A DNA stretch of 41,231 nt from a virus: positions 1 through 41,231 of IMG/VR virus record IMGVR_UViG_3300034280_000763; one strand, written 5' to 3'. A model generated the notes under the pieces. The model was not told the DNA's origin, did not search any database, and worked only from the letters and a program-made list of their open reading frames with translations. Below are positions 1-40,188 of the stretch, piece by piece. Both the position numbers and the translations under genes were made by a program. Each line of letters begins with the position of its first letter. Position 1 is the stretch's first letter.

Positions 1-174
1 GATGGCCGCCTATTCCCGCTCGATGGCCTCGAGGTGATCGCATGAGGGCCGCATGGGAGGAGCGCCCGGTCGAGGTAGTCCGGGAGGAGCATTACCGGAG
101 GATTAGGGATGCCCTGAACAGGCTCCGCGATCCGGAGGGTATGGCACGGCTCCTCGATGCCCGCTACCTGAAGA
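1..174. repeat. Left copy of terminal redundancy (circular overlap)
   Basis: Bases 1-174 match bases 41058-41231 with a single difference (G47 versus C41104). This is the signature of a circular or circularly permuted genome whose assembly was not trimmed. The unique unit is 41,057 bp. Confidence 0.97.
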
Positions 175-584
175 ATGGCGAGGGTTCATGGACTAATGCG
201 GCGCTAATGGCGGAACAGGCACCCGGCCAGATGGTCGAGAATCATTACGGATGGGTGAACCTTCACGGCATCCTAGTGCCTAAGGATCGGACGGCCGATG
301 TGTTCCTATCCGATGGCCGGATGTTGCCTAAAGCGTGTTGGTCACAGTTGCGGCTCGGCCTCGGAGGTGACTACCTCGAGACTCGAGGGGGCGGTCCCAT
401 CCCGGAATGGGATGGCGACTACTGCCGGATGCTTGCCGCCTCCTGGTCGAGCGCCGACGATCCCGAGGCCACCCCTGGGCGCCGCGTCCGGAGACTGAAC
501 CGATGGGCGCTCGAGGTCGAGCCTCGAGGAGTCGAGGGAACCCCGCTCGATAGGCCGGCGCTCGAGGATGCCATCCCATTCTGA
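42..584 (+). CDS. Hypothetical early protein with SSB-like C-terminal tip
   Basis: This 180-aa soluble protein belongs to no family I recognise. Its ATG overlaps the stop of the metallohydrolase gene that precedes it across the circular join (ATGA), so translation is probably coupled. The N-terminal third is rich in Arg and Glu; the middle is Gly-rich with several Trp. The last residues read LEDAIPF, which resembles the acidic -DDIPF tip by which bacterial and phage SSBs recruit partners; this is suggestive only. CTCGAG occurs about six times in the gene. The start of the right-hand copy (41099) encodes Ser instead of Arg at codon 2. A real gene is very likely; the function is unknown. Confidence 0.8.
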   Translation: MRAAWEERPVEVVREEHYRRIRDALNRLRDPEGMARLLDARYLKNGEGSWTNAALMAEQAPGQMVENHYGWVNLHGILVPKDRTADVFLSDGRMLPKACWSQLRLGLGGDYLETRGGGPIPEWDGDYCRMLAASWSSADDPEATPGRRVRRLNRWALEVEPRGVEGTPLDRPALEDAIPF

Positions 585-616
585 CCACGACAACAACGAG
601 AACAGGAGAACAGACC

Positions 617-940
617 ATGAACAGATACCGACTAGTGCGATCCGAAAAGCGGACAATCTGGAGCGGGAGCGGTGGCTCGATTCACCTCGAGAACCCGACC
701 ACCCTCGAGGAGGGAACACTCGCGGAGGTGATCGAGGCCGCGGTCGAGGAGGTGCGAGACACGCTCGAGTATGAAGTCGAGAGCGGCGACCTGCCCCGGG
801 CGGACCTGCCGAGGCCGGACAGTCTCCGGCGCTACCTAGGCCGGGAGATAGTCCGGATGGCGGGCGGCGATACCTACCCCCTGCCGCTGGACTCCGAGGG
901 ATTCTGGTGCCTGACGGTCGAGGAGGTGGAGAGCAACTAA
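617..940 (+). CDS. Hypothetical early protein, 107 aa
   Basis: The ATG at 617 follows an AGGAGAACAG ribosome site. The product starts MNRYRLVRSEKRT, has an acidic middle (TLAEVIEAAVEEVRDTLE, a likely helix) and ends EEVESN. No family is recognised. The stop TAA lies inside a copy of the dispersed motif AACTAAGACAA, and the gene is followed directly by the first tRNA-arm-like intergenic element. It sits second after the genome join in the rightward small-gene operon. Confidence 0.75.
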   Translation: MNRYRLVRSEKRTIWSGSGGSIHLENPTTLEEGTLAEVIEAAVEEVRDTLEYEVESGDLPRADLPRPDSLRRYLGREIVRMAGGDTYPLPLDSEGFWCLTVEEVESN

Positions 941-945
941 GACAA
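931..945 (+). repeat. 15-bp direct repeat, upstream copy
   Basis: GAGCAACTAAGACAA is repeated perfectly at 1031-1045, exactly 100 bp away. This copy spans the stop codon of the 617-940 gene and contains a perfect AACTAAGACAA. Confidence 0.9.
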
Positions 946-951
946 CAGCCC

Positions 952-1014
952 GGGGCGGTGGTTCCCCTGCTCGAGGTTCGATCCCTCGAGGCCCCCTTCC
1001 CGCAATACCGCGGG
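952..1014 (+). ncRNA. tRNA acceptor/T-arm-like RNA module 1 plus hairpin
   Basis: The outer stem GGGGC (952-956) pairs with GCCCC (991-995). Inside are a 13-nt unpaired strand (957-969), a 7-bp stem CTCGAGG/CCTCGAG (970-976/984-990) and a canonical T-loop TTCGATC (977-983). The two stems abut with no spacer, giving 12 stacked bp as in a tRNA acceptor/T-arm. A second hairpin follows, CCCGC-AATACC-GCGGG (999-1014), and then the shared leader. Module 3 keeps the inner 35 nt identical while both outer stems change with compensation, which supports a folded RNA. There is no anticodon arm and no CCA end, so it is not a tRNA. The role is unknown; processing or attenuation are candidates. Confidence 0.65.
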
Positions 1015-1033
1015 AGTCAATCCGAAACAGGAG
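1015..1033 (+). promoter_or_regulatory. Shared early leader, copy A (ribosome-binding leader)
   Basis: AGTCAATCCGAAACAGGAG precedes the 1045 gene. Related leaders stand at 1828, 2866, 3466 and 40195. The element ends in the Shine-Dalgarno core. No promoter is evident just upstream of this copy, only the RNA hairpin. Confidence 0.75.
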
Positions 1034-1045
1034 CAACTAAGACAA
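1031..1045 (+). repeat. 15-bp direct repeat, downstream copy
   Basis: Perfect copy of 931-945. It contains GGAG as the ribosome site, and its last base is the A of the start codon of the next gene. Confidence 0.9.
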
Positions 1046-1272
1046 TGACACGCAAGCACTACAGGCAACTAGCGGACACTCTGGGCCGGGCATACGCGGC
1101 CGGAGTCATGGCAGACAAGACCACCCCGGAGGGGGCCGGCCGATTCTTCGAGATACTCGAGGAGCTGGAGTCCTTCTGCCGGGCGGAGAACGCATCCTTC
1201 GACCGGACCCGGTTCCGGGAGGCGGTCGGCGTGGCGATCCGGGACGAGCAAGGCGAGGAGGTGGCGGCCTAA
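1045..1272 (+). CDS. Small conserved phage protein, MTRKHY type
   Basis: This 75-aa protein begins MTRKHYRQLADTL and has a FDRTRFREAVG segment near its end. The layout (Thr-Arg/Lys-Lys-x-Tyr start, central Glu-rich helix, FDRxRF end) resembles a short protein of unknown function common in actinobacterial and other phages. The ATG at 1045 is chosen because GGAG lies 9 nt upstream and the open frame further left runs through the structured intergenic element. Its TAA overlaps the next ATG (TAATG). Confidence 0.75.
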   Translation: MTRKHYRQLADTLGRAYAAGVMADKTTPEGAGRFFEILEELESFCRAENASFDRTRFREAVGVAIRDEQGEEVAA

Positions 1273-1514
1273 TGTCCACCTTCAGCATCAGCGTTAGCGG
1301 CATCCGAGTCGATTACGGGTTCAGTTACACCTACGACGAGACCATCGACGAGCGGCTCGAGCAAGCCCTCTATCACTACGGGGCGGCGCGGCTCGAGGAT
1401 GAAGTCGAGGCGGCCCTCGAGGAGGAGATCGCGGCCCTCGATGCGAAGGCTGCGGCTGCGGCCCGCACGATCCTCGAGACCTGGGCGCGGTCCCTCGAGA
1501 AGGGGGGCGAGTGA
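1272..1514 (+). CDS. Hypothetical early protein, 80 aa
   Basis: The ATG shares one base with the upstream TAA. The N-terminal part has a beta-like pattern (MSTFSISVSGIRVDYGFSY). The rest is a strongly acidic, Ala/Glu-rich helix that could form a coiled coil (about residues 30-78). CTC-GAG pairs recur in frame as Leu-Glu. No family is recognised. The stop TGA overlaps the next ATG. Confidence 0.7.
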   Translation: MSTFSISVSGIRVDYGFSYTYDETIDERLEQALYHYGAARLEDEVEAALEEEIAALDAKAAAAARTILETWARSLEKGGE

Positions 1515-1771
1515 TGCCCGGCCCCTTTGTCTGGATCAACACGAGCGGCGAGACCGCCTGCGGCGAGCGAGGTCACGGCGGCGGGGCGCTCGAGGCTGCG
1601 CTCGAGGCCGGCCTAGCAACCCCGATGGCCGGAGACCCCGGGCACCTCGAGGTAGCCACGGGCCTAAGCCATTGGATCGGGTTCCCTGGGGGGCGGTCGG
1701 TCCTGGGGCACGAGCGGCTCGAGTGCGAGTGGTGCGAGCGAGAGAGGGAGGAGGCGACGACCGGAAACTAA
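1514..1771 (+). CDS. Hypothetical early protein with CxxC near C-terminus
   Basis: The 85-aa product starts MPGPFVWINTSG. The ATG at 1514 is preferred over a GTG three bases earlier because it overlaps the previous stop (TGATG). Near the end, LECEWCERERE places two cysteines as CxxC after an upstream His, a possible partial metal site, but a complete zinc finger is not visible. It is the last gene before hairpin 1778-1810 and the internal promoter. Confidence 0.6.
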   Translation: MPGPFVWINTSGETACGERGHGGGALEAALEAGLATPMAGDPGHLEVATGLSHWIGFPGGRSVLGHERLECEWCEREREEATTGN

Positions 1772-1777
1772 GCGAGG

Positions 1778-1810
1778 CCCGGGGAGCGGTCGAGGTGGCC
1801 GCTTCCCGGG
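1778..1810 (+). terminator. Strong hairpin, likely terminator before internal promoter
   Basis: CCCGGGGAGCGG (1778-1789) pairs with CCGCTTCCCGGG (1799-1810) around a 9-nt loop; all 12 positions pair, one as G-U. No T-run follows, as is usual in high-GC genomes. It sits between a stop codon and a promoter, so terminator or insulator is the natural reading. Confidence 0.6.
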
Positions 1811-1812
1811 TG

Positions 1813-1821
1813 TGGTATAAT
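1813..1821 (+). promoter_or_regulatory. Extended -10 promoter (TGG TATAAT)
   Basis: TATAAT at 1816-1821 is a perfect -10 hexamer preceded by TGn. No -35 match is seen 17 nt upstream, consistent with an extended -10 promoter. The shared leader CAGTCAATCC begins seven bases after the hexamer, the same spacing as at the main promoter (TAGGAT 40183), so the leader probably begins at the transcript start. Confidence 0.7.
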
Positions 1822-1827
1822 CCCTAA

Positions 1828-1850
1828 CAGTCAATCCGAAACAGGAGGTA
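1828..1850 (+). promoter_or_regulatory. Shared early leader, copy B
   Basis: CAGTCAATCCGAAACAGGAG followed by GTA sits directly downstream of the TATAAT promoter. The AGGAGG at 1843-1848 is 8 nt from the GTG at 1857 and only 2 nt from the GTG at 1851, which decides the start of the next gene. Confidence 0.8.
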
Positions 1851-1856
1851 GTGAAA

Positions 1857-2792
1857 GTGTATGAAGGCTACGAGATAGAGACCCGAGGTGGGCTGGTCGC
1901 GCTCGAGTATTCCGAGCAGGACTGGGAGAACCCGCTCACCTGGTGGAGCATCAAGGAGCGGGGCAAGTGTGAGATGGCCTCGGTCCCGGGCGTGAGGTCC
2001 GGCGACCCCGGCGAGGTGACCTGCTCGAGGTGCGAGGGTAACGGAACCCTCGAGGCCACCGATGGGGAGGAGCCGGAGTGCCCCGACTGCGAAGGCTACG
2101 GGGTGCGGCCGGCCAAGAGCGAGGCGGAATGGTGCGCGGATCACGGCGCGGTAGCGGCTGTGCCCGTGTCCTACAACATGAACACCTCGCAACCGTGGAT
2201 TCAGACGGTCGATTGGGAGAACCTCGAGGATGCCGGTTCGATCCTCTACCTCGAGGAAGGCTACGGCCATACGACCGAGGTTATCGAGGCCCGGATCACG
2301 GACCTCTCTTTCGCTCTCGAGTATGGCTACTCGATAGTGACGGTCGGGGTAGACCCTGACTCGGACCTGCCCGAGGATGCGCTCGATGGATGGACGGGCG
2401 GCGGGGTTGGGATGATCCTGGGCCAGACCTCTATCAAGGAGGAGGCAGATCGGCAACTCGAGGATGCCACCGCATACCTGCGGGCAGAGATGGCCCGGAG
2501 GGAGGCGCTCGAGGCTCGAGGCGTGAAGGCTGGCGGCAGCCCGGAGGCGCGGCGAGTGACGCTCGACCGGGCAGACCTGCTCGAGGTTGCGCGGCACCTG
2601 GTGGCGGACCTCGAGAGTAGCGATCCCTACTGGACGCGGTGGGACGAGGAGGAGGACGGCGCGGACTCGGAGCGAGCGGCCCTCGTGCGGGCGGTCGAGT
2701 CGATCCGGACGGCGCTCGAGGAGGGAGGGAGCCTCAGGGTTCCGAGCGGGCCGGCCCTCGAGGTGCCCCCGCTCGAGGAGGTGACCAACTAA
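1857..2792 (+). CDS. Hypothetical early protein with DnaJ-type CxxCxGxG motifs
   Basis: This 311-aa acidic protein is the largest of the rightward arm. Around residues 56-80 it carries CSRCEGNG and CPDCEGYG, two CxxCxGxG repeats of the DnaJ zinc-domain type, probably binding one zinc ion. There is no J domain, so it is not a DnaJ. The remainder is helical and Glu-rich with many Leu-Glu pairs encoded by CTCGAG. The GTG at 1857 is chosen for Shine-Dalgarno spacing; the in-frame GTG at 1851 would add two residues. The TAA lies within an AACTAAGACAA motif. Function is unknown; nucleic-acid or protein binding through the zinc site is plausible. Confidence 0.75.
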   Translation: MYEGYEIETRGGLVALEYSEQDWENPLTWWSIKERGKCEMASVPGVRSGDPGEVTCSRCEGNGTLEATDGEEPECPDCEGYGVRPAKSEAEWCADHGAVAAVPVSYNMNTSQPWIQTVDWENLEDAGSILYLEEGYGHTTEVIEARITDLSFALEYGYSIVTVGVDPDSDLPEDALDGWTGGGVGMILGQTSIKEEADRQLEDATAYLRAEMARREALEARGVKAGGSPEARRVTLDRADLLEVARHLVADLESSDPYWTRWDEEEDGADSERAALVRAVESIRTALEEGGSLRVPSGPALEVPPLEEVTN

Positions 2793-2797
2793 GACAA
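2787..2797 (+). repeat. Dispersed motif AACTAAGACAA
   Basis: Perfect copy overlapping the stop codon of the 1857-2792 gene, in the direction of transcription. Confidence 0.85.
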
Positions 2798-2802
2798 TGG
2801 CC

Positions 2803-2857
2803 GGGGCCTGCGGCACCTGGGCGGTTCGACTCCGCCCGGCCCCTTCCCCTTCGGGGG
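2803..2857 (+). ncRNA. tRNA acceptor/T-arm-like RNA module 2 plus UUCG hairpin
   Basis: The outer stem GGGGCC (2803-2808) pairs with GGCCCC (2838-2843). A 10-nt unpaired strand (2809-2818) is followed by a 6-bp stem GGGCGG/CCGCCC (2819-2824/2832-2837) with T-loop TTCGACT (2825-2831). The stacked stems again total 12 bp. A second hairpin CCCC-TTCG-GGGG (2846-2857) has a stable cUUCGg tetraloop. The sequence differs from modules 1 and 3 but the architecture is the same, followed by the same leader. Confidence 0.6.
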
Positions 2858-2865
2858 GTAGTGAA

Positions 2866-2888
2866 CAGTCAATCCAAATGAAAGGAAG
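2866..2888 (+). promoter_or_regulatory. Shared early leader, copy C (diverged 3' part)
   Basis: CAGTCAATCC is intact, followed by AAATGAAAGGAAG in place of the usual GAAACAGGAGG. The AAAGGAAG is the ribosome site for the ATG at 2896. Confidence 0.7.
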
Positions 2889-2895
2889 TAAGACG

Positions 2896-3387
2896 ATGGC
2901 AAAGGAACAATCGGGAGAGAGCGGGATGATCCCGGCAGGTGAGTATTGGGTGGGCGATCCGTGCTACTGCTTCACGGATCACAACCGCTGGATGGCGCTG
3001 CTCGAGTCGGCCGACTACATGGGCGACCATGCCATCCTCGAGGCGGAGGCGGGAGGCGCAATCTTCGTGGCCTCACGGACTGCCCACGGAGACGGGCGCT
3101 ACTCGGACCAACGAGGCAGGAGTTACCCGGTAGATGCCGGCCTGCTCGGTGTCGTCCCGGTCGGCATGGAGGAGGAGCCGGAGTCCTGGGCGCGCTCGAG
3201 AGACGAGCTGCTCGCTCGAGTGACCTTCGAGCAACCGTTCCGGATCACCTACGACTGGGGCACCGTTCAGATCGGCCACCTCGTGATCGAGACCGACAAC
3301 GAGGAGGACGAGGAGGACGAGGAGGAGTGCGAGGAGTGCGGCTGGCTGCTCGACGACTGTAACTGCGAGGAGGTGGTCCCTGCGTAA
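2896..3387 (+). CDS. Hypothetical protein with GDPCY motif and acidic Cys-rich tail
   Basis: The product is 163 aa. The N-terminal region reads GEYWVGDPCYCF, a glycine-Asp-Pro-Cys-Tyr motif I associate with small phage proteins of unknown function. The middle is a beta-rich fold. The C-terminal 30 residues are extremely acidic (runs of Glu/Asp encoded by a GAGGAGGAC repeat) and contain CEECGWLLDDCNCEE, four cysteines that could bind a metal. The ATG at 2896 is chosen because of AAAGGAAG upstream and because the longer frame would translate through RNA module 2. Confidence is high that it is a gene, low on function. Confidence 0.75.
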   Translation: MAKEQSGESGMIPAGEYWVGDPCYCFTDHNRWMALLESADYMGDHAILEAEAGGAIFVASRTAHGDGRYSDQRGRSYPVDAGLLGVVPVGMEEEPESWARSRDELLARVTFEQPFRITYDWGTVQIGHLVIETDNEEDEEDEEECEECGWLLDDCNCEEVVPA

Positions 3388-3394
3388 CCCTGCT

Positions 3395-3456
3395 GCCGGC
3401 GGTGGTTCCCCTGCTCGAGGTTCGATCCCTCGAGGCCGGCGTCCCCAATACCGGGG
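3395..3456 (+). ncRNA. tRNA acceptor/T-arm-like RNA module 3 plus hairpin
   Basis: The outer stem GCCGGC (3395-3400) pairs with GCCGGC (3435-3440). The inner part is identical to module 1: a 13-nt strand (3401-3413), a 7-bp stem (3414-3420/3428-3434) and T-loop TTCGATC (3421-3427). The second hairpin CCCC-AATACC-GGGG (3443-3456) keeps the loop of module 1 but changes the stem. Compensated changes in two helices with fixed loops are direct evidence of selection on RNA structure. Confidence 0.65.
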
Positions 3457-3465
3457 ATTAGTGAA

Positions 3466-3482
3466 CAGTCAAACAGGAGGTA
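3466..3482 (+). promoter_or_regulatory. Shared early leader, copy D (shortened)
   Basis: CAGTCAAACAGGAGGTA lacks the TCCG of other copies. The AGGAGG at 3475-3480 is 7 nt from the GTG at 3488, the likely start of the next gene. Confidence 0.75.
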
Positions 3483-3487
3483 GTGAA

Positions 3488-3979
3488 GTGGCAACTAAGA
3501 CAATGACAACCGATACCTGGACGAGGAGCGAGGCTGCCGCGCTGTGGCTGCCGCGCATGGAGGCAGACCTCGAAGCGGTGTGGCGGGACAAGCCCCGTGA
3601 CCCAGGCTCCGGGGTGTTTCTCTCCGATGCGCTGCCGAGCGGGGCGCGGGTGGTGTTCGGGATCACGAGCCTTACCCCGATGGGGCGGAGGTGGTATGGC
3701 GTGGACTACAGAATCATGCTCGGCCACGACCTCGAGTTCCTCTACGCCACCATCGAGACCAGGCAAGTGACGACTGCCGGCAAGTGGGCCCAGGGGTGGG
3801 GATTCACCACCCCGGAGGTGACGGTCTACGGGCCCAGAGACTACGGGCGGGAGCGAGAACCGCACCTCTCGCTGAGTAGCGGCGACGCATACCCAGACAA
3901 CCTCGAGGTATTCCGCGGCCAGCTCGAGCTCGGGGAGATACTGCTCGACAGGCTCAGGCACGAGGGGGTGGAGGCATGA
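3488..3979 (+). CDS. Hypothetical early protein, 163 aa
   Basis: The GTG at 3488 has ideal spacing to AGGAGG; an in-frame ATG at 3503 lies 22 nt away and is less likely. The reading frame opens V-ATKTMTTD, where ATKT is encoded by the dispersed motif. The protein is a mixed alpha/beta chain with aromatic clusters (RRWYGVDYRIMLGHDLEFLY) and no motif I recognise. Its TGA overlaps the following ATG. Confidence 0.75.
   Translation: MATKTMTTDTWTRSEAAALWLPRMEADLEAVWRDKPRDPGSGVFLSDALPSGARVVFGITSLTPMGRRWYGVDYRIMLGHDLEFLYATIETRQVTTAGKWAQGWGFTTPEVTVYGPRDYGREREPHLSLSSGDAYPDNLEVFRGQLELGEILLDRLRHEGVEA
3493..3503 (+). repeat. Dispersed motif AACTAAGACAA
   Basis: Perfect copy inside the first codons of the 3488 gene, in the direction of transcription. 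Confidence 0.85.
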
Positions 3980-4128
3980 GCGAACCGACCTCAATCACGG
4001 AGTGGGCGGAAAGCGTGGGGCTCTCGCTCGAGCAGGCCCTCGAGGGCGGTGTCAGCGAGGACGACAACGGCACGGTCCACATCCCGAGGGATGTATGGAA
4101 GTGGCTACGGGCCCAGGGCAGGGTGTGA
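3976..4128 (+). CDS. Small 50-aa protein, HTH/excisionase-like size
   Basis: The frame reads MSEPTSITEWAESVGLSLEQ and ends RDVWKWLRAQGRV. The ATG overlaps the upstream stop (ATGA), and the next gene starts 2 bp after its stop, so it fits exactly between neighbours. The helix-turn-helix-like cadence (ITEWAESVGLSLEQALEGG ... IPRDVWKWLRAQ) resembles small MerR/Xis-type DNA-binding folds. That assignment is tentative. Confidence 0.65.
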   Translation: MSEPTSITEWAESVGLSLEQALEGGVSEDDNGTVHIPRDVWKWLRAQGRV

Positions 4129-4130
4129 GT

Positions 4131-4331
4131 ATGAACATCACCCCGATCCGACCAGGTGATCTAGTCCGCTGCGATGTGCGCGGGCAGAAGTTCGTGGCCG
4201 AGGTGGTAGGGAAGGAGGGCGGGGAGCTGGCGCTCGAGCCGGTGAACCGCCCCTTCATCCCTGCCTACAAGGTCAAGGCGCGGCAGGTCGTCAATCATTG
4301 GCGGCTGGCCGGCAGGAGGCGAGCCTCGTGA
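4131..4331 (+). CDS. Small beta-barrel-like protein, 66 aa
   Basis: The product starts MNITPIRPGDLVRC and continues with alternating hydrophobic strands (KFVAEVVGKEGGELALEPV), an SH3/KOW-like pattern, ending in a basic tail (RLAGRRRAS). The fold call rests on pattern only. The ATG lies 2 bp after the previous stop; the TGA overlaps the GTG of the next gene (GTGA). Confidence 0.65.
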   Translation: MNITPIRPGDLVRCDVRGQKFVAEVVGKEGGELALEPVNRPFIPAYKVKARQVVNHWRLAGRRRAS

Positions 4332-4507
4332 GTGGCGTCGAGCCGGGCAACCTCGGCCTAGACCGGATAGACGAGGGGCTCGAGGCTGCGCTCGAGGCCA
4401 TCGAGAAGGCGGCTGCCGCATATTGGGAGGCGCCCCTCGAGCTAACCCAGGAGGCGAAGGCCCTCGACCAGGCAGCGGCCATACTAAGAAAGGTGGTGGT
4501 CCCGTGA
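4328..4507 (+). CDS. Small helical protein, 59 aa
   Basis: The GTG at 4328 overlaps the upstream stop as GTGA. The product is an amphipathic Ala/Glu/Leu-rich helix from about residue 12 to the end (LDRIDEGLEAALEAIEKAAA), probably a helical hairpin. No family is recognised. Confidence 0.6.
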   Translation: MSGVEPGNLGLDRIDEGLEAALEAIEKAAAAYWEAPLELTQEAKALDQAAAILRKVVVP

Positions 4508-4767
4508 GTGGCGACCGGCCCGACCTTCAGGCAATCATTCGAGGCGTCGTGCGCGAGCGGTTCGCGGGCGTCGAGCCTGAGGACCGGGACACATCGTGGG
4601 AGGTGGGTGTCTACCTCGAGGGCGAGGTGTTCGACCATGTGTGGGACAATCTCCCTCGAGGCTACTCCCGCACCCTGATCGAACAGGCGTTGGCCCTGGT
4701 GGACTGGGCTCGAGTAGCGGATCACGCTACCTGGGAGCTAGACGACGACCAGGAGGAGGCAGCATGA
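4504..4767 (+). CDS. Hypothetical early protein, 87 aa
   Basis: The GTG start overlaps the previous TGA (GTGA) and the stop overlaps the next ATG. The protein is acidic with two likely helices (LQAIIRGVVRERF, SRTLIEQALALVDWARVAD) and ends DDDQEEAA. No motif is recognised. Confidence 0.65.
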   Translation: MSGDRPDLQAIIRGVVRERFAGVEPEDRDTSWEVGVYLEGEVFDHVWDNLPRGYSRTLIEQALALVDWARVADHATWELDDDQEEAA

Positions 4768-4961
4768 AGGAGACCATCCTCCGCCTGCGAGAGGCGGAGG
4801 AAGCAAGGCAGGCAGCGAGGCGCGACCAGGCGGCAGCGAGGCGCGAGGTTCAGCGGCTAATCAAACAGGCGAGAGAGGAGGGAATGACGGTGGTTGCGAT
4901 TGCGGAAGCCACCGGGATTAGCCGGGAGAATCTTCACCAGCTTCTAAGGCAGCCGTCCTAA
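4764..4961 (+). CDS. Small HTH DNA-binding protein
   Basis: The product is 65 aa. Residues 1-40 form a charged helix rich in Arg/Ala/Glu. The C-terminal part VVAIAEATGISRENLHQLLRQ is a clear helix-turn-helix of resolvase/sigma type (turn at TGIS). Last gene of the rightward operon. Its 3' end overlaps the end of the convergent leftward gene by 44 bp, so there is no room for a separate terminator. A regulator of the early arm is the obvious possibility. Confidence 0.75.
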   Translation: MKETILRLREAEEARQAARRDQAAARREVQRLIKQAREEGMTVVAIAEATGISRENLHQLLRQPS

Positions 4962-5481
4962 TCTCCTCCGCCTCGCCCTCGATCACGACTCCCTCCACCT
5001 GAACTCCCTTAGCGGCGAGGGCCCGGAAGATTTCCGGCAGCTCCCGCTTGTTCAGGTGGATGGAGGTCGGGTCGCCGTTGAGAAGGGCGGCCTTGTCTAC
5101 ATGGACTGCCCCGGCGATGGCGACATTCCTTAGTAGGGCGGCCTTGTCCTTCCCTGAAAGTTCGGCTATCTCCTGCTCGAGCTCGTCTATGGTCGAGTGT
5201 TCGAGGGCGGCGAGGCGCTCGGCCAGGTCCGTGTGCGTGTCGGCAAGGCGGGCCTTGATCTTGGGTGCTACCTCGGCGCGAATCTCGGCATAGCGATCCT
5301 TGTAGGTGTCCGGCCATCGGGCAAAGGTCGAGGCCGGCGGCACCCTGTCGAACAGCTTCAGCTCGACCAGGCGCTTCCGGGCCCGGCCCAGGTTTCCAGA
5401 CTCGAGGGCCAGGACTGTGAGAGCGGCCTCGATTTCCTCGGCCGTGTGCTTTGCGCGGGGGTGGGGAACGAGTGTGGTCAT
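4918..5481 (-). CDS. Putative terminase small subunit / HTH DNA-binding protein
   Basis: This 187-aa protein has an N-terminal HTH-like region (NLGRARKRLVELKLFDRVPPASTFARW). A helical middle contains LAERLAALEHSTIDELEQEIAEL, and then comes AALLRNVAIAGAVHVDKAALLNGDPTS. That last segment, with a conserved Asp-Lys and Gly-x-Pro-Thr/Ser, recalls small-terminase-like or HTH proteins of phages. If it is TerS it lies far from TerL (34792-36279), at the end of the leftward early operon. The start ATG at 5481 lacks a strong ribosome site. It could instead be a general regulatory HTH protein. Confidence 0.5.
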   Translation of the reverse strand: MTTLVPHPRAKHTAEEIEAALTVLALESGNLGRARKRLVELKLFDRVPPASTFARWPDTYKDRYAEIRAEVAPKIKARLADTHTDLAERLAALEHSTIDELEQEIAELSGKDKAALLRNVAIAGAVHVDKAALLNGDPTSIHLNKRELPEIFRALAAKGVQVEGVVIEGEAEEIRTAALEAGEDSPG

Positions 5482-5667: not shown

Positions 5668-5853
5668 TCATTGTTCCACTCCGGTCGGATGCGTTATCCG
5701 CTCGACATACCAGCCTCGAGCAGCGAAGCCAGCAGCGAACGCCGCGGCCTCGGCTGCCGTCAGCGGTTGGGCCACGGTGTAGGGGGTGCCATCGGGCCGG
5801 ATACCGCACACCCGGTAGCGACCCTCAGTATCGGTAGGGGCTGTCCCAGTCAC
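5668..5853 (-). CDS. Small hypothetical protein, 61 aa
   Basis: A GTG start gives MTGTAPTDTEGRYRVCGIRP. The phrase DGTPYTVAQPLTAAEAAAFAAGF followed by ARGWYVERI looks like a small alpha/beta domain. It overlaps the end of the upstream gene by 29 nt and the ribosome site is weak, so confidence is moderate. Confidence 0.5.
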   Translation of the reverse strand: MTGTAPTDTEGRYRVCGIRPDGTPYTVAQPLTAAEAAAFAAGFAARGWYVERITHPTGVEQ

Positions 5854-6100
5854 GCTCGACGCTGCTCACTTTCTCGACACAACCCAGGCCGTCCGCCTGG
5901 TAGCGACCGCTTCGGCTAAGGGTTCCGGGTGGATCGGGCTGCCGCTTTATCTCGCGGAAGTCCTGCTCCCCCAGGTGAACCTCTATGTCGCCGTCCGGAT
6001 CGGGGATGCGGACTACCCAAAGGCCGGCCCACCCCTTCTTGACCAACTCGCCTACCCGGTTGTATTGGTCGTGCTTGCTGTTGGTGACGATCACTTTCAC
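5825..6100 (-). CDS. Hypothetical protein, 91 aa
   Basis: The GTG at 6100 overlaps the upstream stop (GTGA) and has GGAGAGGAG upstream, so the shorter frame is preferred over an ATG at 6142. The product reads VKVIVTNSKHDQYNRVGELVKKGWAG, then beta-like segments (LWVVRIPDPDGDIEVHL). No family is recognised. Confidence 0.65.
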   Translation of the reverse strand: MKVIVTNSKHDQYNRVGELVKKGWAGLWVVRIPDPDGDIEVHLGEQDFREIKRQPDPPGTLSRSGRYQADGLGCVEKVSSVERDWDSPYRY

Positions 6101-6615
6101 GAGTCGCTCCTCTCCTGTAGTTGCGCGAGCTTGTAGCGGCACGACTCGATCACCGGGTCGAGCCTTGTCTTAGTTGCCTCCGACCCTCGAGCCCATCGGA
6201 CTAGGTGACGCTCGAGCTCTGCCTCCATTCGCCTGCGCTCCTGGATCAGCGTGTTCTTGGCCCGGTCCTCGGGGCCAGGCTCGAAGTGCTCGGCCTCCAC
6301 GCGGTCGAGGGCAAGGAAGGGATCGGATGTGTAGCCGGCCCCCCTCCTAAGAAAGGAAGGGCGGGGTGGTGGCGGGTCGTATTGCGTGATCCACCTGGCA
6401 CCATCGGCTGAGACCTTGACGACTTTGATCCACCGGCTCGGGTAGGTGAGGTTCACCCCTAGCTCCGGGTCCGAGCTTCGGCCCCACTCGAGGATCACGC
6501 GGTCGCCTGGGCGGAAGGGCGGGCGCTCGTCATGGATCAGCACCGGAACCCTGCCCCTAAGAATCCGCTCGCGTGTGGCATTGGGGATTGTGCCCTTCCA
6601 GGAGTGGTCAGCCAT
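6097..6615 (-). CDS. Hypothetical protein, 172 aa
   Basis: The ATG at 6615 has GGAGG 9-13 nt upstream; the longer open frame would run into the attP region. The N-terminal half contains FRPGDRVILEWGR and a beta-rich section (SRWIKVVKVSADGARWITQYD), suggesting a small barrel. The C-terminal half is a charged coiled coil (IQERRRMEAELERHL). Codons for ATKTR come from a perfect copy of the dispersed motif (6165-6175). It is the first gene beyond the integrase/attP side. Confidence 0.65.
   Translation of the reverse strand: MADHSWKGTIPNATRERILRGRVPVLIHDERPPFRPGDRVILEWGRSSDPELGVNLTYPSRWIKVVKVSADGARWITQYDPPPPRPSFLRRGAGYTSDPFLALDRVEAEHFEPGPEDRAKNTLIQERRRMEAELERHLVRWARGSEATKTRLDPVIESCRYKLAQLQERSDS
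6165..6175 (-). repeat. Dispersed motif AACTAAGACAA
   Basis: Perfect copy on the minus strand within the 6097-6615 gene, in the direction of its transcription. Confidence 0.8.
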
Positions 6616-6752
6616 CGACCCGGGCCTCCGAACAATCTCCGAACCAACAGACGCAAGCCCGCGCAAGTTCCAGCAACCGGGCTCGAGGACGCGGCGCTTG
6701 GTTATGCGGGTTTCCGGGGGCAACCTTGCGGCTGTTGGCACCCCGAACATCT

Positions 6753-6790
6753 GTGTAAAGCAGGTGCTCTACCATCTGAGCTAACCGCCC
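6753..6790 (-). other. attP-like core: 5' half of a tRNA-Val(TAC) gene
   Basis: Read on the minus strand, this is a tRNA 5' half: acceptor strand GGGCGGT (6790-6784), TA, D-arm GCTC-AGATGGTA-GAGC (6781-6766), A26, CCTGC (6764-6760), then anticodon loop TTTACAC (6759-6753) with anticodon TAC. The following bases AGATG do not pair with CCTGC, and no T-arm or acceptor 3' strand follows. The match thus ends at tRNA position 38. It lies 40 bp downstream of the integrase stop. A tRNA fragment beside a tyrosine integrase is the classic attP core; use of the 5' half is less common than the 3' half. Confidence 0.8.
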
Positions 6791-6830
6791 CCAGAGCTAA
6801 AAGTGGCCGTTGTCATGCTATCGCCGGGCG

Positions 6831-9117: not shown

Positions 9118-9558
9118 CTAGGTAATGGGTTCCGGATGGGATTCGGATGGCATCCCTAAGCGGTCTGCCAGCTTCGGCGCGTAGCGGTTCGCGGCCTCCA
9201 CGAAGTCATCCCAGAGGGAAGTGTCGGGCACCTCCTGAAGGGCGTTTATCGCCCCCTGAATCTGCTTGTCGGTAAGGGGCTGGTGATACTTGAGCGCCTT
9301 ACGAACTAAGACAACCTCGGCCATGAAGTCGTAGGAGAGGAAGCCCCGCTCCTCGAGGGCTGCCATCCGAACATCCACATCCATAGAGCTCCATCCGAGG
9401 TCCGCCTGGATGTAGGGCAGGGGGAGTCGGTAGAGGCCCTCGAGGTTGCGATGCTCTGAGGTCAGCAGGTAGAGCGCCAGGAGCTTTGTCTCGGCGTCGA
9501 GCTGCCTCACCTCGGAGTCACTCCAGAACAGCGGGGAGATTGGGTAATACCTAGCCAT
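9118..9558 (-). CDS. Phage replication protein (winged-helix N-terminal domain)
   Basis: The product is 146 aa. MARYYPISPLFWSDSEVRQL and the following LLALYLLTSEHRNLEGLYRL, then MAALEERGFLSYD, are typical of phage replication initiator or replisome-organiser N-terminal domains (winged helix). The usual C-terminal DnaD or primase-recruiting part is absent; the frame stops after PEPIT. The next gene may supply a partner. Likely role: origin recognition or helicase recruitment. Confidence 0.75.
   Translation of the reverse strand: MARYYPISPLFWSDSEVRQLDAETKLLALYLLTSEHRNLEGLYRLPLPYIQADLGWSSMDVDVRMAALEERGFLSYDFMAEVVLVRKALKYHQPLTDKQIQGAINALQEVPDTSLWDDFVEAANRYAPKLADRLGMPSESHPEPIT
9304..9314 (+). repeat. 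Dispersed motif AACTAAGACAA
   Basis: Perfect copy on the plus strand, inside the leftward 9118-9558 gene, so opposed to transcription here. Confidence 0.8.
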
Positions 9559-10601: not shown

Positions 10602-11134
10602 TAGAAGGGAATGTCATCGAACGAGTCCCGCTTTGGGGCAGGCTCGTCGTTGTCCGTGTGTGGCGGCGGCTCCTCGGTCCTTCCCTCGGGGCTGAGGGTG
10701 ATTCCCTCCATGACCCGATTGAGGTAGAGGTTCTGATACTCGCGTCCATCGTTTCCCTTGCGGGTCTTGAGGACGACTTCGCACACCTTGTCGAGCGCCG
10801 TCTGGAGATTCGTCTCGAGTTCCTCGAGCGAGAAGGCGACCACACCGAGAGCCTCGAGGTGGCGCTTCGTCCACTTCAGGCGCTCGGGGTTCTCGAGCGG
10901 GTGGAATGTGGAGACCTTCCATCCCATGTTCGAGGGCCCCACAATCTCGAACTGAGTCCGGAGGGCGAGACCGCCCTTGCCATCGTGGAAGTCGAAGGAG
11001 TGAACCCTGGCCTGGTAGTCACCGTCCGGCGGGTTCTCCCACTCACGCTTCTCTTCTTTCGGCTCGTCGGCGTCGGCTGCCTTCCACGCGCTGTCCATCG
11101 CCTTGAGCCTTTCGGTCCTAGTATCCGGGGTCAC
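10601..11134 (-). CDS. Single-stranded DNA-binding protein, DUF669-like
   Basis: The product is 177 aa. NPPDGDYQARVHSFDFHDGK, followed by strands LALRTQFEIVGPSN and GWKVSTFHPLEN, matches the OB-fold-type DUF669 SSB-like family of phages. The C-terminal 30 residues are Pro/Asp-rich and end DSFDDIPF, the acidic SSB tip that binds partner proteins. It lies directly downstream of the Sak4-like recombinase, the usual SSB-Sak4 pairing in phage recombination modules. Confidence 0.8.
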   Translation of the reverse strand: MTPDTRTERLKAMDSAWKAADADEPKEEKREWENPPDGDYQARVHSFDFHDGKGGLALRTQFEIVGPSNMGWKVSTFHPLENPERLKWTKRHLEALGVVAFSLEELETNLQTALDKVCEVVLKTRKGNDGREYQNLYLNRVMEGITLSPEGRTEEPPPHTDNDEPAPKRDSFDDIPF

Positions 11135-11856
11135 TTGGTAGCCCCTCCCTTCTGCGGCTTGGCCGCGTCGGTGATTGCCTTCCTTACCGCCACCGCATCG
11201 AGCGGAAGCGGATCGGGCAGGGCCACTCGCCCGCCCGCGATGTATTCCTCTGCGGCGGCGGTTCTAAGAATCCGCTGCTCGCCCTCCTCGGTAGTCCTGA
11301 TGGGCTCGGCGTAGAGGATGTAGTCCACGAAGCCCTCGAGAAATGAGAAGGCCCGCTTGTCGAGAGTCGGGATGGTTCTCGTCCTGGTCCCCACTCGCGT
11401 CCTGAGTTCCGTTTCCTGCGCGTGGCTAATGAACCACACGCCCCGACCCAGGCCAGCCATCTTCCCGACACGAAGCCGGAACTCGTCGCGGGCAGACTGC
11501 CAACCCTTTCCCCACTCGGCATCGGCCAGGTGCGCTATCTCGAGCTGCTGGCAGACAGCATCGGCGCACATCCGATACAGCTCGTCCACCGTGTCGATGA
11601 CAACGATGGAGTGCTTGTCCGTCTCGGACAGCTCGGCACCCACCTTGCGGAATGTGTCCCACGAGTCGATCTCGACGGAGTAAGCGGACAGCCCCCCGAG
11701 CCCCGGCTCACACGCGAGGACTAGAACATCGTCCACGAGGTTCGCGGCTAGGGTCGTCTTTCCGATCTTCGGCTGACCGTAAAGGAGCACCTTCGCCTTC
11801 TCGAAGGTAAGGGTCGGCGGTGTTTTCTTAGTTGGTAGTAGCGTGGCTGTAGCCAT
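11131..11856 (-). CDS. Sak4-like RecA-fold single-strand annealing ATPase
   Basis: The product is 241 aa. Walker A is GQPKIGKTT (residues 27-35) and Walker B is HSIVVIDTVDEL (about 82-93). FISHAQETE and the following strands fit the RecA-like core of the phage Sak4/AAA_24 family, which pairs with SSB to anneal DNA. Stop and start overlap the SSB gene by ATGA. With the Cas4-like nuclease upstream it forms a compact recombination cassette. Confidence 0.85.
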   Translation of the reverse strand: MATATLLPTKKTPPTLTFEKAKVLLYGQPKIGKTTLAANLVDDVLVLACEPGLGGLSAYSVEIDSWDTFRKVGAELSETDKHSIVVIDTVDELYRMCADAVCQQLEIAHLADAEWGKGWQSARDEFRLRVGKMAGLGRGVWFISHAQETELRTRVGTRTRTIPTLDKRAFSFLEGFVDYILYAEPIRTTEEGEQRILRTAAAEEYIAGGRVALPDPLPLDAVAVRKAITDAAKPQKGGATK

Positions 11857-13210: not shown

Positions 13211-13433
13211 GAATAGCCTCCTCGCGGGCCGCCTTCCTATGGAAGTATTCGGCCACGGCGTCCCGGTAGTCGTCACCCATCAGGTCGTATTCCCTCTGAG
13301 GTAGGCGGGTATCAGGTCGCGGCCTAGCAACCGATTTATCCATAAGCCGTGTCACGAGCCACTCGGCCCCGGCGAGCAACACCGCGCCAATCAGAATCAC
13401 GGCGAGGTAAAACATGAATCCCTCAATCGGCAT
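13200..13433 (-). CDS. Small single-pass membrane protein, 77 aa
   Basis: Residues about 7-28 (MFYLAVILIGAVLLAGAEWL) form one transmembrane helix near the N-terminus; the rest is a charged cytoplasmic-type tail (DDYRDAVAEYFHRKAAREEA). It is second in the leftward early operon after the cro-like gene. Early membrane proteins of this type may act in superinfection exclusion, but nothing specific is visible. Confidence 0.65.
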   Translation of the reverse strand: MPIEGFMFYLAVILIGAVLLAGAEWLVTRLMDKSVARPRPDTRLPQREYDLMGDDYRDAVAEYFHRKAAREEAIRGR

Positions 13434-13668
13434 GATGGCCTCCCGCCGCGGGGCCCACGGCCCGCATCACAAAGTCGGACTCGATCCCCGTCAGTTCGAC
13501 CACCTTCGTTGCGATTCCCATACGAGACAGGTCCGGAACCTCGTGCTGGCCCTTCTCGTAGCGGATCAGCGTGGCGGTTGAAACCCCGAGCTTCCGAGCC
13601 ATTTCGACCTGTGAGAGCTGCCCGTATGCGCGGGCTGCTCGGATGCGCCTTCCTAGTTCACCATCCAC
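13423..13668 (-). CDS. Cro-like HTH repressor heading the leftward early operon
   Basis: The product is 81 aa from the GTG at 13668 (GGGAGG just upstream); an ATG at 13689 would add 7 residues. LGRRIRAARAYGQLSQVEMA followed by RKLGVSTATLIRYEKGQ is a classic XRE/Cro helix-turn-helix. It is transcribed divergently from the 13862 HTH gene, with which it shares RIRAARAY and the same helix order. The short length and position at the head of the replication operon fit a Cro-type regulator. Confidence 0.8.
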   Translation of the reverse strand: MDGELGRRIRAARAYGQLSQVEMARKLGVSTATLIRYEKGQHEVPDLSRMGIATKVVELTGIESDFVMRAVGPAAGGHHAD

Positions 13669-13861
13669 TTTTCCTCCCGTCTCCTTCATCGTTGGCCGCA
13701 ACATAACATTCTTCACGGACGGAAGATACGACACCGGGCGAGACTTTCCTGCTTGATGCGTTCTTTTTGTTCTGCTGCTACACTTACCGCCGCTTGAGCG
13801 GGCAGAATGAATCTGTGAGAGCAAAGCGGCACAGGTAGCTAGAACGACCAGGGAAGGGAAG
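13669..13861. promoter_or_regulatory. Divergent control region between two HTH genes
   Basis: This 193-bp gap must hold both promoters of the switch. Candidate operators are the palindrome CCGCTTGAGCGG (13790-13801) and the inverted pair TTCTGC/GCAGAA (13770-13775 and 13802-13807). Possible -10 boxes are TACACT (13779-13784, rightward, TGC before it) and a leftward TGTTATGTT; neither has a good -35. The region is less GC-rich than its surroundings. Confidence 0.55.
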
Positions 13862-14215
13862 ATGGGACTACCTAGAGGTATCGAGAGGTTCAGCAAGCTA
13901 GACGAGCGAGAGTTCGCTGGCAGGATTAGGGCGGCAAGGGCATATGCCGACCTGACACTCGAGGAGGCCGGGACAATGCTCGGTATCAGTCGGCAGGCGT
14001 TGAGCCGTCGAGAGAATCAGGCGGTCTCTGTCTCGACCCCTGAACGATTCATTATGGCGACGGTTTACTCAGAGGTAACGGGTTGGCCCGAGACTTTCTT
14101 CACGGAGGAGAGGATGCCCGATCTTCCGGTCCCACAACCCGAAGATGCGGAGCTCGAGCTGGAGGATGTTCCCCACCTCGTAGGTGAGCCGCCAGATGCT
14201 TCCGAGCTTCCGTAA
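13862..14215 (+). CDS. Putative immunity repressor, XRE-type HTH
   Basis: This 117-aa protein is the only plus-strand gene outside the rightward arm. EFAGRIRAARAYADLTLEEA followed by GTMLGISRQALSRRENQ is an XRE helix-turn-helix. A short C-terminal domain is acidic (EDAELELEDVPHLVGEPPD), without a peptidase signature, so no RecA-triggered self-cleavage is apparent. Its isolation, orientation and divergence from a Cro-like gene suggest it is the lysogeny repressor. AGGGAAGGGAAG precedes the ATG. Confidence 0.75.
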   Translation: MGLPRGIERFSKLDEREFAGRIRAARAYADLTLEEAGTMLGISRQALSRRENQAVSVSTPERFIMATVYSEVTGWPETFFTEERMPDLPVPQPEDAELELEDVPHLVGEPPDASELP

Positions 14216-27861: not shown

Positions 27862-29369
27862 GAATCGTCCTCAATCCCTGGTTGTCTGACTTGTCTTACT
27901 TGGTGGGTTGCGCGGTGGACCGCCCACGCTGCGGTCCCGCGAATGAGCATGGAGAAGGTCGTCCCGCGAGCGGCCCTACGGCGCTGCCTCGGAGCAAGGC
28001 CGCGTGGCTCGGCCCAGTAGGAGGTATTCCACGCCTCTGAGCCTGGGGAGTTCCATTGGGGGTCGGTTCCCGACTCGGTGAAGGCAACCGCGATCACATT
28101 CCCTTCGTCCTCCTCAAAGTCCGTGGACATTCCGATAAAGGTTTCCCCGGCTCCCCACAGCTTCGATGCCCGAACTACCTTTATGTCGGGGCTGTTGAAG
28201 TCGAGCCACCCCGAGCGCCACTTGGCCTCAATCGCGGTGCCGTTGTCGTCGGGATCGGTGCGGCGGTGTTCGGCAAGGATCGTGTCTCCGAACCAGAGCT
28301 TTCCGTCGAAGCCGTGAACCCACTTGGCGGGGAGGTCGTAAAGCGAGAACCAACCCGCATCCGTGTCGTGAACTAAGACTCGCTGCCCTGCCGTAGAGGT
28401 AAAGGCCATGTAGATCGTGTCGTCCACGGCGGCAAGCCGGCAAGAGGTTATGTCGCTGATCGTGCCGCCCGTGTAGTAGCCAGAGGTATTGCCGGTCCAC
28501 AGCGGCTCGACGGCATCAGACACCTTCTCGGCGCTCGAGCCCGTGGTCCGGTAGAGCCCGTCAGGGCCTACGAAATAGACACCGTTTCGTGTGGTGGCAA
28601 TACCGAACGGCGAGGCAAGCCCCACGCCGCCCTCCACAGGGCGGTAGTTGAAGATCGGGTCGCCTGCGGCGTTTTGAGAGTTGCCGTAGAACACGAAGAA
28701 CTTGCTCTCCTTGAATACGAATACGAGCTCGCGCCATCCGACTGCTCCTTGAATCTTTTCTCCGTCGCCGGGGGTTAGCTGGACATAATCGAGTGCGTTC
28801 CAGGTCGCCGGGTCGCCGGGGTCCGAGAACCAGACATGGGAAGGGCTGGTGGTGGCTGCTGCGGGGCCATCGGTCGCCCCGAGAAAGCCGGTGGAGACAA
28901 GGCGGTTATCCGCGGACTGGACGGCTAGGTAGCGCCCCTTGGGGACGACGATGGACGACGAGTTGGGGTTGGTGAAGGCGCTGCCGTTGTAGTAGCGAAC
29001 ATCGGTGCCGTTGGAGGCATAGATGCGCTCTGAGGATGGGGTGCCGTAACGGGCAAAGGAGAAGGCAACCGTGGGAGTGGTGAGGCTTCCCGACGCGCCC
29101 TGGGTGCCGCCGCTTGTGTCGTAGCCCCTGAGCTGGCTGCTAACGGTCGTAAGGATGCGCTTGGACCCTGCGGTAGTGCTAAACGATCCAAGGCCCAGGA
29201 TCGTCGCGTTGAGCCTTTCCACGAACCCGCCACGGGTGACGATGGCTCCGCGCTCGGAAAAGCCGACATTCATCGCGTCTATGGCCTCTGCCGCGTCCAC
29301 GGCATCGGGCTTGTCTCTTAGATTCAGCCCCCTACCGAACCCCTGATACGGGAAGGACTGGTAGGCCAT
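27858..29369 (-). CDS. Tail nozzle protein (podovirus type)
   Basis: The product is 503 aa. MAYQSFPYQGFGRGLNLRDK and SERGAIVTRGGFVERLNAT resemble the start of podoviral nozzle or P22 gp10-like proteins, which form the tip of the short tail. Repeated beta segments (YASNGTDVRYYNGSAFT, YFVGPDGLYRTTG) fit a beta-propeller. It lies directly after the adaptor gene with a one-base overlap, the standard podovirus order. Confidence 0.75.
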   Translation of the reverse strand: MAYQSFPYQGFGRGLNLRDKPDAVDAAEAIDAMNVGFSERGAIVTRGGFVERLNATILGLGSFSTTAGSKRILTTVSSQLRGYDTSGGTQGASGSLTTPTVAFSFARYGTPSSERIYASNGTDVRYYNGSAFTNPNSSSIVVPKGRYLAVQSADNRLVSTGFLGATDGPAAATTSPSHVWFSDPGDPATWNALDYVQLTPGDGEKIQGAVGWRELVFVFKESKFFVFYGNSQNAAGDPIFNYRPVEGGVGLASPFGIATTRNGVYFVGPDGLYRTTGSSAEKVSDAVEPLWTGNTSGYYTGGTISDITSCRLAAVDDTIYMAFTSTAGQRVLVHDTDAGWFSLYDLPAKWVHGFDGKLWFGDTILAEHRRTDPDDNGTAIEAKWRSGWLDFNSPDIKVVRASKLWGAGETFIGMSTDFEEDEGNVIAVAFTESGTDPQWNSPGSEAWNTSYWAEPRGLAPRQRRRAARGTTFSMLIRGTAAWAVHRATHQVRQVRQPGIEDDS

Positions 29370-29962: not shown

Positions 29963-30453
29963 TTCTTGAACATCTTCCTTTTCTTGAGCCCTCCGCTTCC
30001 GAATACGCGGCTGCCGGCACGAATGTCCATAGCCGCAACATCTATGTTCTGTTCACGGGCGAGCTCGGCGTCCTTCTTGGCCTGCTCCGATTGTCTTAGT
30101 TGTCTCTCCCTGAGCTCCTGGAGCGCCCCCTCTCGCCATAGGTCGGCCGCCTTCATATCCTCGATGATCCCCAGAGAGGGCTCCACATACTCCTTGTCCG
30201 GCCCCATGATCGGCCAGTAGGAGTGAATGAGTCCTGGAGGGGTGCGGCGGATATGCCACCTTCCCGGCACGATGCCGGCGATTACCCCTTCCTCGGCCTT
30301 GGGGCCGATCCAGACCAGCTCGAGGTATGGGTCCAAGCCCTTGAGCTCTGCGTTTATCTGTTTGACGAGCGGGGAGTAAGGCGGTCCCTGCTCTACGGCC
30401 TGCTCTCGCATCGCGTTTAGCGGCACGATCAGGCCCGATGAAGTCTTTGGCAC
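29959..30453 (-). CDS. Hypothetical structural-region protein, 164 aa
   Basis: GTG start after GGAGG. The product starts MPKTSSGLIVPLNAMREQAV, has a beta region (LELVWIGPKAEEGVIAGIVP) and a charged helical C-terminus ending GGLKKRKMFKK. The codons RQLRQ come from a dispersed-motif copy (30091-30101). It lies between capsid and adaptor genes; a head-related role is likely by position only. Confidence 0.65.
   Translation of the reverse strand: MPKTSSGLIVPLNAMREQAVEQGPPYSPLVKQINAELKGLDPYLELVWIGPKAEEGVIAGIVPGRWHIRRTPPGLIHSYWPIMGPDKEYVEPSLGIIEDMKAADLWREGALQELRERQLRQSEQAKKDAELAREQNIDVAAMDIRAGSRVFGSGGLKKRKMFKK
30091..30101 (-). repeat. Dispersed motif AACTAAGACAA
   Basis: Perfect minus-strand copy inside the leftward 29959-30453 gene, in the direction of transcription. 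Confidence 0.8.
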
Positions 30454-39973: not shown

Positions 39974-40158
39974 GGCCCCCTCGATAGCCTGACCCCCCGG
40001 CAGGTGATCCGGCCCCCTCGATCCGGCCCCCGCGGTTTAGGTCCGTGCGCCCCGCTCGAGACCGTGCCATTCACCCCCCTCGATCCTGCCGGCCTGATCC
40101 TCCGGCCTGATCCCTCGAGGTGCGCGATCCCTGATGCCATGCCGGATTCACGGATCGC

Positions 40159-40188
40159 TTGACAACCTGCCCCGGTATGTGTTAGGAT
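40159..40188 (+). promoter_or_regulatory. Main rightward early promoter
   Basis: TTGACA (40159-40164), an 18-nt spacer and TAGGAT (40183-40188): a perfect -35 and a good -10. It drives the small-gene arm that crosses the circular join. The shared leader CAGTC begins at 40195, seven bases after the -10. Confidence 0.85.

What the first reader, a model, noticed from the sequence alone, without database searches (positions are those of the whole stretch)
935..945. Dispersed 11-mer AACTAAGACAA, stoperator-like
Eight perfect copies in 41 kb (935, 1035, 2787, 3493 plus; 6165, 30091, 39963 minus; 9304 plus) where well under one is expected by base composition, and several near copies (for example 11823, 19471, 28373, 37574). 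Most run in the direction of transcription, both within genes and at stops or starts. Cluster A mycobacteriophages silence prophages with repressor bound to oriented 13-bp stoperators; these sites may serve one of the HTH proteins (13862-14215 or 4764-4961).
Basis: partly seen in the sequence, partly recalled or inferred. Interest (0 to 1): 0.7.

Follow-up and report, generated by a model that had tools for sequence, protein, structure and literature searches.

The report
Phage's repeated, direction-marked 12-letter DNA tag
A temperate soil phage carries the same one-way 12-letter DNA word over and over along its genes although the word is almost absent from bacteria of its probable host group, so it is very likely a docking site for one of the phage's own proteins, perhaps one that blocks transcription as in some mycobacterial phages.

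Summary
AACTAAGACAA occurs 8 times at the stated places; a third-order Markov model expects 0.005. It is the top-ranked 10-, 11- and 12-mer of the window. The true word is CAACTAAGACAA (7 exact, 3 with one mismatch). The same pipeline run on known cases ranks Bxb1 stoperators and TM4 start-associated sequences first, with similar scores. Four early-operon copies (935, 1035, 2787, 3493) sit at gene ends beside a repeated intergenic cassette and may be partly related by duplication. Four others (6165, 9304, 30091, 39963) are unlinked to it and rule out chance. Nine of ten sites point with transcription. The word occurs in only 2 of 232 genomes of the host-like order. The stoperator reading is partly supported. 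No site lies at the early promoter or in the divergent repressor region, no Bxb1-type repressor homologue was found, there are only about 10 sites rather than 20-30, and 80-89% identical relatives lack the word. I conclude that it is a phage-specific, asymmetric recognition site, probably for a DNA-binding regulator that acts like stoperators, but not a demonstrated member of the cluster A system. The binding protein is unknown.

The parts
934..945 (+). exact site CAACTAAGACAA, overlaps stop codon of gene 617-940
1034..1045 (+). exact site, runs into ATG of gene 1045-1272 (AACTAAGACAATG)
2786..2797 (+). exact site, overlaps stop codon of gene 1851-2792
2886..2896 (+). degenerate site AAGTAAGACGA running into ATG 2896
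3492..3503 (+). exact site in codons 2-5 of gene 3488-3979 (GTG start), ends on an in-frame ATG
6165..6176 (-). exact site near the 3' end of gene 6097-6750, upstream of gene 5825-6142
9303..9314 (+). one-mismatch 12-mer (exact 11-mer), antisense inside DnaD-like helicase-loader gene 9118-9558; forces a TTA codon (10 in the listed genes, 1% of Leu)
11823..11834 (-). one-mismatch site CAACTAAGAAAA just after the start of gene 11131-11856
27891..27902 (-). one-mismatch site CAAGTAAGACAA 30 nt before the end of gene 27858-29369; second weak copy at 27882
30091..30102 (-). exact site inside gene 29959-30453; absent from the homologous position of 3 of 3 relatives at 72-82% local identity
39963..39974 (-). 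exact site in the non-coding stretch between the late (-) and early (+) operons
946..1034 (+). intergenic cassette A: T-arm-like stem-loop (GGTTCGATCC), second hairpin, leader AGTCAATCCGAAACAGGAG
2798..2885 (+). intergenic cassette C: same layout, different stem (GGGCGG/CCGCCC)
3388..3491 (+). intergenic cassette D: same layout, 94% identical to A over 48 nt
40159..40188 (+). early promoter candidate TTGACA-18-TAGGAT with TG; no site with up to 2 mismatches nearby; 11-bp inverted repeat at 40124-40158 abuts the -35
13423..13689 (-). XRE-type HTH gene (88 aa from the internal ATG), candidate repressor; the longer ORF reaches 13896
13862..14215 (+). divergent XRE-type HTH gene (117 aa)
4764..4961 (+). 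small HTH protein (65 aa, phrog_686) at the end of the early operon

Best explanation
CAACTAAGACAA is an asymmetric recognition site for a phage-encoded DNA-binding protein, present about ten times in the temperate phage genome and mostly pointing with transcription, often at gene ends. The most likely mechanism is stoperator-like: in the lysogen the protein sits on the sites and stops RNA polymerase that leaks into the early, recombination and late operons. Shown: sites, enrichment, asymmetry, orientation, positions, near absence from host-like genomes. Inferred: that it is read as DNA, that a phage protein reads it, and that the outcome is transcription block. Which protein does it is unknown.
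For: 8 exact 11-mers against 0.005 expected, top word of the window; 12-mer classes 7/3/3 at 0/1/2 mismatches against simulated means 0/0.15/1.4, that is, a sharp site and not a soft bias. In-gene copies use rare codons (TTA 1%, AGA 5.6%, CTA 10.6%, ACA 10%) and do not arise in synonymous shuffles. Found in 2 of 232 genomes of the host-like order (4 copies; reversed-word control 27). Orientation 9 of 10 with transcription; 7 of 10 within 35 nt of a CDS end. The same pipeline ranks Bxb1 stoperators and TM4 SAS first, at similar scores. The phage is temperate by gene content: tyrosine integrase, excisionase-like HTH, part of a tRNA gene beside int. Two AACTAAGACNN copies lie antisense to genes, which favours DNA over RNA recognition.
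Against: No site with up to 2 mismatches at the early promoter or in the divergent HTH region, where a repressor's sites are expected; a separate inverted repeat stands at the early promoter. About 10 sites, not 20-30. Of 8 exact copies, 4 are intergenic or overlap a gene end, 1 lies 5 nt inside a start and 3 lie inside genes, whereas 23 of 28 Bxb1 sites are intergenic or overlap ends. None of 4 relatives' contigs (about 54.6 kb) holds the 11-mer with up to 1 mismatch, and the position of site 30091 is not conserved in 3 of 3. No repressor of the L5/Bxb1 type found.
Confidence: 0.45

Rival explanations
1. The word is a site for another phage DNA-binding protein, with a role in replication, DNA partition, recombination or packaging, and the orientation bias is incidental.
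For: One copy lies inside the DnaD-like helicase-loader gene; copies lie in all operons including late structural genes; no copy at the promoters.
Against: Copies are spread singly over the genome and not clustered as in origins, centromeres or integrase arm sites; the partial tRNA-Val at 6753-6792 (likely attP) has no copy closer than 6165. Gene-end and orientation bias would be unexplained.
Confidence: 0.25
2. It is a start-associated RNA element: part of a repeated leader that tunes translation or mRNA processing of early genes, as proposed for SAS/ESAS of cluster K phages; distant copies are secondary.
For: 1035 and 3493 (and degenerate 2886) run into an ATG behind AGGAG-type ribosome sites; pairs 935/1035 and 2787/2886 are 100 and 99 bp apart and enclose cassettes with stem-loops; the linked leader word AGTCAATC itself occurs 11 times against 1.06 expected.
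Against: 2 of the 8 exact copies overlap stop codons, 2 lie at starts, 4 are elsewhere; one exact copy is antisense. The word has no ribosome-binding complement by inspection. Cassette folds are not more stable than shuffles (z -0.79, 0.81, -0.23). The TM4 SAS consensus has 0 matches.
Confidence: 0.18
3. No function as a set: recent duplication of the intergenic cassette plus chance copies.
For: Cassettes A and D are 94% identical over 48 nt, so some early copies may share descent.
Against: Four copies have no cassette nearby; P = 3e-11 for four by chance, still about 1e-4 after allowing for all 4.2 million 11-mers.
Confidence: 0.04

Closest known systems
Operators/stoperators of cluster A mycobacteriophages (L5, Bxb1)
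   Same: Short asymmetric word, many dispersed copies, oriented with transcription, often at gene ends; recovered by the same k-mer test.
   Different: Fewer sites; none at the early promoter or repressor region; many in genes; no homologous repressor found; a divergent XRE pair is present, whereas cluster A has no Cro analogue or divergent CI/Cro arrangement (passages of PMC6550527).
Start-associated sequences (SAS/ESAS) of cluster K mycobacteriophages
   Same: Dispersed 13-bp asymmetric word next to early gene starts, some with an upstream inverted repeat, nearly absent from the host (passages of PMC3203893).
   Different: SAS lie almost all immediately upstream of starts; here only 2 of 8 exact copies do. 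No sequence match. The separate AGTCAATCC...CAGGAGG leader of this phage fits SAS better than the 11-mer.
Arm-type integrase sites
   Same: Short direct repeats bound by a phage protein.
   Different: Arm sites cluster around attP (cluster K example); here the nearest copy is about 580 bp away and the rest are spread over 41 kb.

Membership tests
Cluster A stoperator system | Short asymmetric site strongly over-represented genome-wide | tested here: met
   8 against 0.005 expected; score 50.6 between Bxb1 (60.6) and TM4 SAS (44.5)
Cluster A stoperator system | 20-30 sites per genome | tested here: not met
   10 sites with up to 1 mismatch, 13 with up to 2, of the 12-mer; 20-30
Cluster A stoperator system | Sites oriented with transcription | tested here: met
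   9 of 10 (up to 1 mismatch), 9 of 11 (AACTAAGACNN); Bxb1 27 of 28; weak statistics here
Cluster A stoperator system | Sites mostly in short intergenic gaps | tested here: inconclusive
   4 of 11 AACTAAGACNN sites intergenic or overlapping a gene end, against 23 of 28 in Bxb1
Cluster A stoperator system | Same site at the early lytic promoter | tested here: not met
   nearest site with up to 2 mismatches is 39963, about 190 bp from the -35 and on the other strand
Cluster A stoperator system | Conserved site upstream of the repressor gene | tested here: not met
   none with up to 2 mismatches in 13690-13861, if the XRE gene is the repressor
Cluster A stoperator system | Repressor homologous to L5 gp71 / Bxb1 gp69, two DNA-binding domains | tested here: not met
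   Bxb1 gp69 against 62 window ORF translations: no phmmer hit, best blastp E 0.087 to a protein without HTH match; XRE candidates show one HTH match each; L5 itself was not held
Cluster A stoperator system | Site-bound repressor blocks elongation in one orientation only | not testable with these tools
   needs reporter assay
Cluster K SAS/ESAS | Copies immediately upstream of start codons | tested here: not met
   2 of 8 exact copies, plus degenerate 2886
Cluster K SAS/ESAS | Consensus GGGATAGGAGCCC | tested here: not met
   0 matches with up to 2 mismatches
Cluster K SAS/ESAS | Near absence of the word from the host | tested here: met
   2 of 232 host-like genomes, 4 copies; the host itself is inferred

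The most novel reading that the evidence does not exclude
A stoperator-type prophage-silencing system that arose independently of cluster A: a temperate phage of a Solirubrobacterales-like host scatters a 12-bp one-way site through all operons, read by a regulator unrelated to L5/Bxb1 repressors, while its promoters are controlled by a separate XRE switch.
Probability: 0.3. Interest if true: 0.65.

Novelty: new variant of a known kind. Interest (0 to 1): 0.48.

Why it matters
Transcription-stopping repressor sites are, as far as I recall, characterised mainly in cluster A actinophages. A second, unrelated case would show that silencing a prophage at many elongation sites is a general strategy and would give a regulator-site pair to test. 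The word also gives a specific handle for finding this phage's immunity group in soil metagenomes.

Tried and rejected
Chance or base composition: rejected. L5 stoperator consensus in the window: 2 matches with 2 mismatches against 1.66 expected, rejected. Host regulator site: rejected as unlikely, the word occurs in 2 of 232 host-like genomes. Relatives carrying the same word: IMG/VR pattern scans for word plus GGTTCGA gave 15 stretches, each in a contig with a single copy, taken as chance; word pair at cassette spacing gave 4 stretches of 32-37% GC, taken as chance; leader pattern gave 0; protein scans with gene 1851-2792 and HTH 13862-14215 gave none. Over-represented words of the relative G003 proved mostly to be repeats inside a tail gene. 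tRNA or Rfam elements for the T-arm-like cassettes: none. Structure models of 13862-14215 (pLDDT 62.6) and 4918-5481 (53.9) were too weak for a fold search, and none was run. Text searches: no phage paper among the 10 of 15 listed papers holding the 11-mer; Solirubrobacter/Thermoleophilia phage papers: listings only, nothing on regulation seen.

Full report
What the window is. The 41,231-base record has a 174-base terminal repeat with one mismatch, so it is close to a complete circular or redundant phage genome of about 41,057 bp. It encodes a terminase and other large structural genes shared with related contigs, a tyrosine integrase, an excisionase-like HTH, a PD-(D/E)XK nuclease, an AAA ATPase and a DnaD-like helicase loader. 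The closest terminase among bacterial genome contigs is from a Solirubrobacterales MAG (33%), and integrases 47-57% identical occur in genomes of that order next to tRNA genes. The window holds the 5' half of a tRNA-Val-like sequence at 6753-6792 beside the integrase, a likely attP. The host assignment is therefore an inference. Genes form an early rightward unit (from promoter-like 40159-40188 through the end repeat to 4961), a leftward unit from 13.7 kb down to 4.9 kb, and the late leftward unit below 39.7 kb (unit borders inferred).

The observation. All 8 copies of AACTAAGACAA are present. Expected number under a third-order Markov model is 0.0053. Among words of 10, 11 and 12 bases it, or its overlapping versions, ranks first. 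Allowing a flanking C, the 12-mer CAACTAAGACAA has 7 exact, 3 one-mismatch and 3 two-mismatch copies, against simulated means of 0, 0.15 and 1.37 in 60 order-3 simulations. In genes, 4 exact copies are seen against 0 in 400 synonymous shuffles; this count includes 3493, which lies at the start of its gene. In-gene copies use rare codons, most clearly TTA at 9304, one of 10 TTA codons counted in the listed genes.

Independence of the copies. Copies 935/1035 and 2787/2886 (the last degenerate) are 100 and 99 bp apart and enclose intergenic cassettes; cassette D ends near 3493. A and D are 94% identical over 48 nt. C has the same layout with a different stem. These early copies may partly descend from duplication. 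Copies 6165, 9304, 30091 and 39963 have no cassette, and four such copies by chance have P = 3.3e-11, about 1e-4 after allowing for all 11-mers.

Controls. The same counting on Bxb1 (50,000 of 50,550 bases) puts its stoperators first (at 11 bases: 10 copies, score 60.6; 8 copies, 51.7), and on TM4 (50,000 of 52,797 bases) its SAS first (score 44.5); the window word scores 50.6. In Bxb1, 27 of 28 sites GTTACGNNTCAA have one orientation to transcription and 23 of 28 are intergenic or overlap a gene end; in the window 9 of 11 AACTAAGACNN sites are co-directed and 4 of 11 are intergenic or overlap an end. Of the ten sites with up to one mismatch, 9 are co-directed (11823 and 27891 read from their strand and gene) and 7 lie within 35 nt of a CDS end (base rate 0.168, P = 2.8e-4); among the exact copies with cassette-linked ones collapsed it is 2 of 5, P = 0.20. 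The gene list behind these figures is my own choice of ORFs. In 232 genomes of the host-like order the 11-mer occurs 4 times in 2 genomes; the reversed word occurs 27 times by my count of the table.

Results against the stoperator reading. No site with up to 2 mismatches lies at the early promoter or between the divergent XRE genes. At the early promoter there is instead an 11-bp inverted repeat (40124-40134/40148-40158) and a direct repeat CCGGCCTGATCC, whose words occur nowhere else in the window. No window protein resembles the Bxb1 repressor (62 ORF translations; two of these had misplaced ends). Published cluster A systems have 20-30 sites, with operators at Pleft and no divergent CI/Cro arrangement (passages of PMC6550527) and a monomeric two-domain repressor (passages of PMC9283540). 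Four contigs from related phages (80-89% nucleotide identity over most of the aligned structural genes) hold no copy with up to one mismatch (4 of the 9 records; the near-identical contig of L009 keeps the 30091 copy), and the position of 30091 is changed in 3 of 3. Upstream of the late genes, homology to L013 weakens from about 39838, before the 39963 site. Distinct words in heteroimmune relatives are known in cluster A, so this does not exclude immunity-type sites, but conservation gives no positive support.

SAS comparison. Cluster K SAS lie immediately upstream of starts and may have an upstream inverted repeat (passages of PMC3203893). Only 2 of 8 exact copies of the 11-mer fit. A second repeated element, AGTCAATCC...CAGGAGG, precedes ribosome-binding sites at 1015, 1829, 2867, 9911(-), 14417, 40196 and, shortened, near 3462, and fits that idea better.

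Verdict. The word is a genuine, phage-specific, asymmetric site. A stoperator-like DNA site is the best single explanation (0.45), but several defining links (promoter operator, known repressor type, site number) were tested and not met, so it is not filed as a member of the cluster A system.

Noticed in passing
946-1034, 2798-2885, 3388-3491: Three intergenic cassettes with a tRNA T-arm-like stem-loop (GGTTCGANYCC) on an outer stem plus a second hairpin; A and D are 94% identical over 48 nt and C keeps loop and layout with a different stem. No tRNA or Rfam match; folding energy no better than shuffles.
   Followed up: partly
1015, 1829, 2867, 3462, 9911(-), 14417, 40196: Leader word AGTCAATC(C) before ribosome-binding sites; 11 copies of AGTCAATC in the window against 1.06 expected, an SAS-like element.
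   Followed up: partly
whole window, densest 1-5000: CTCGAG occurs 124 times (66 expected at order 3); 53 of the copies lie in the first 5 kb.
   Followed up: no
6753-6792 (-): 5' half of a tRNA-Val(TAC)-like sequence next to the integrase, ending after the anticodon loop; likely attP core.
   Followed up: partly
1-174 and 41058-41231: Terminal repeat of 174 bases with one mismatch (position 47): the record is circular or terminally redundant although classed linear.
   Followed up: yes
1760-1860: Strong hairpin (z -3.93) followed by an extended -10-like TGGTATAAT between genes 1511-1771 and 1851-2792.
   Followed up: no
40124-40158: 11-bp inverted repeat abutting the -35 of the early promoter, a candidate operator unrelated to the dispersed word.
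   Followed up: partly
L040 9741-10901: A related contig carries a gene of repeated RCC1-like units (label recalled) among its tail genes.
   Followed up: no
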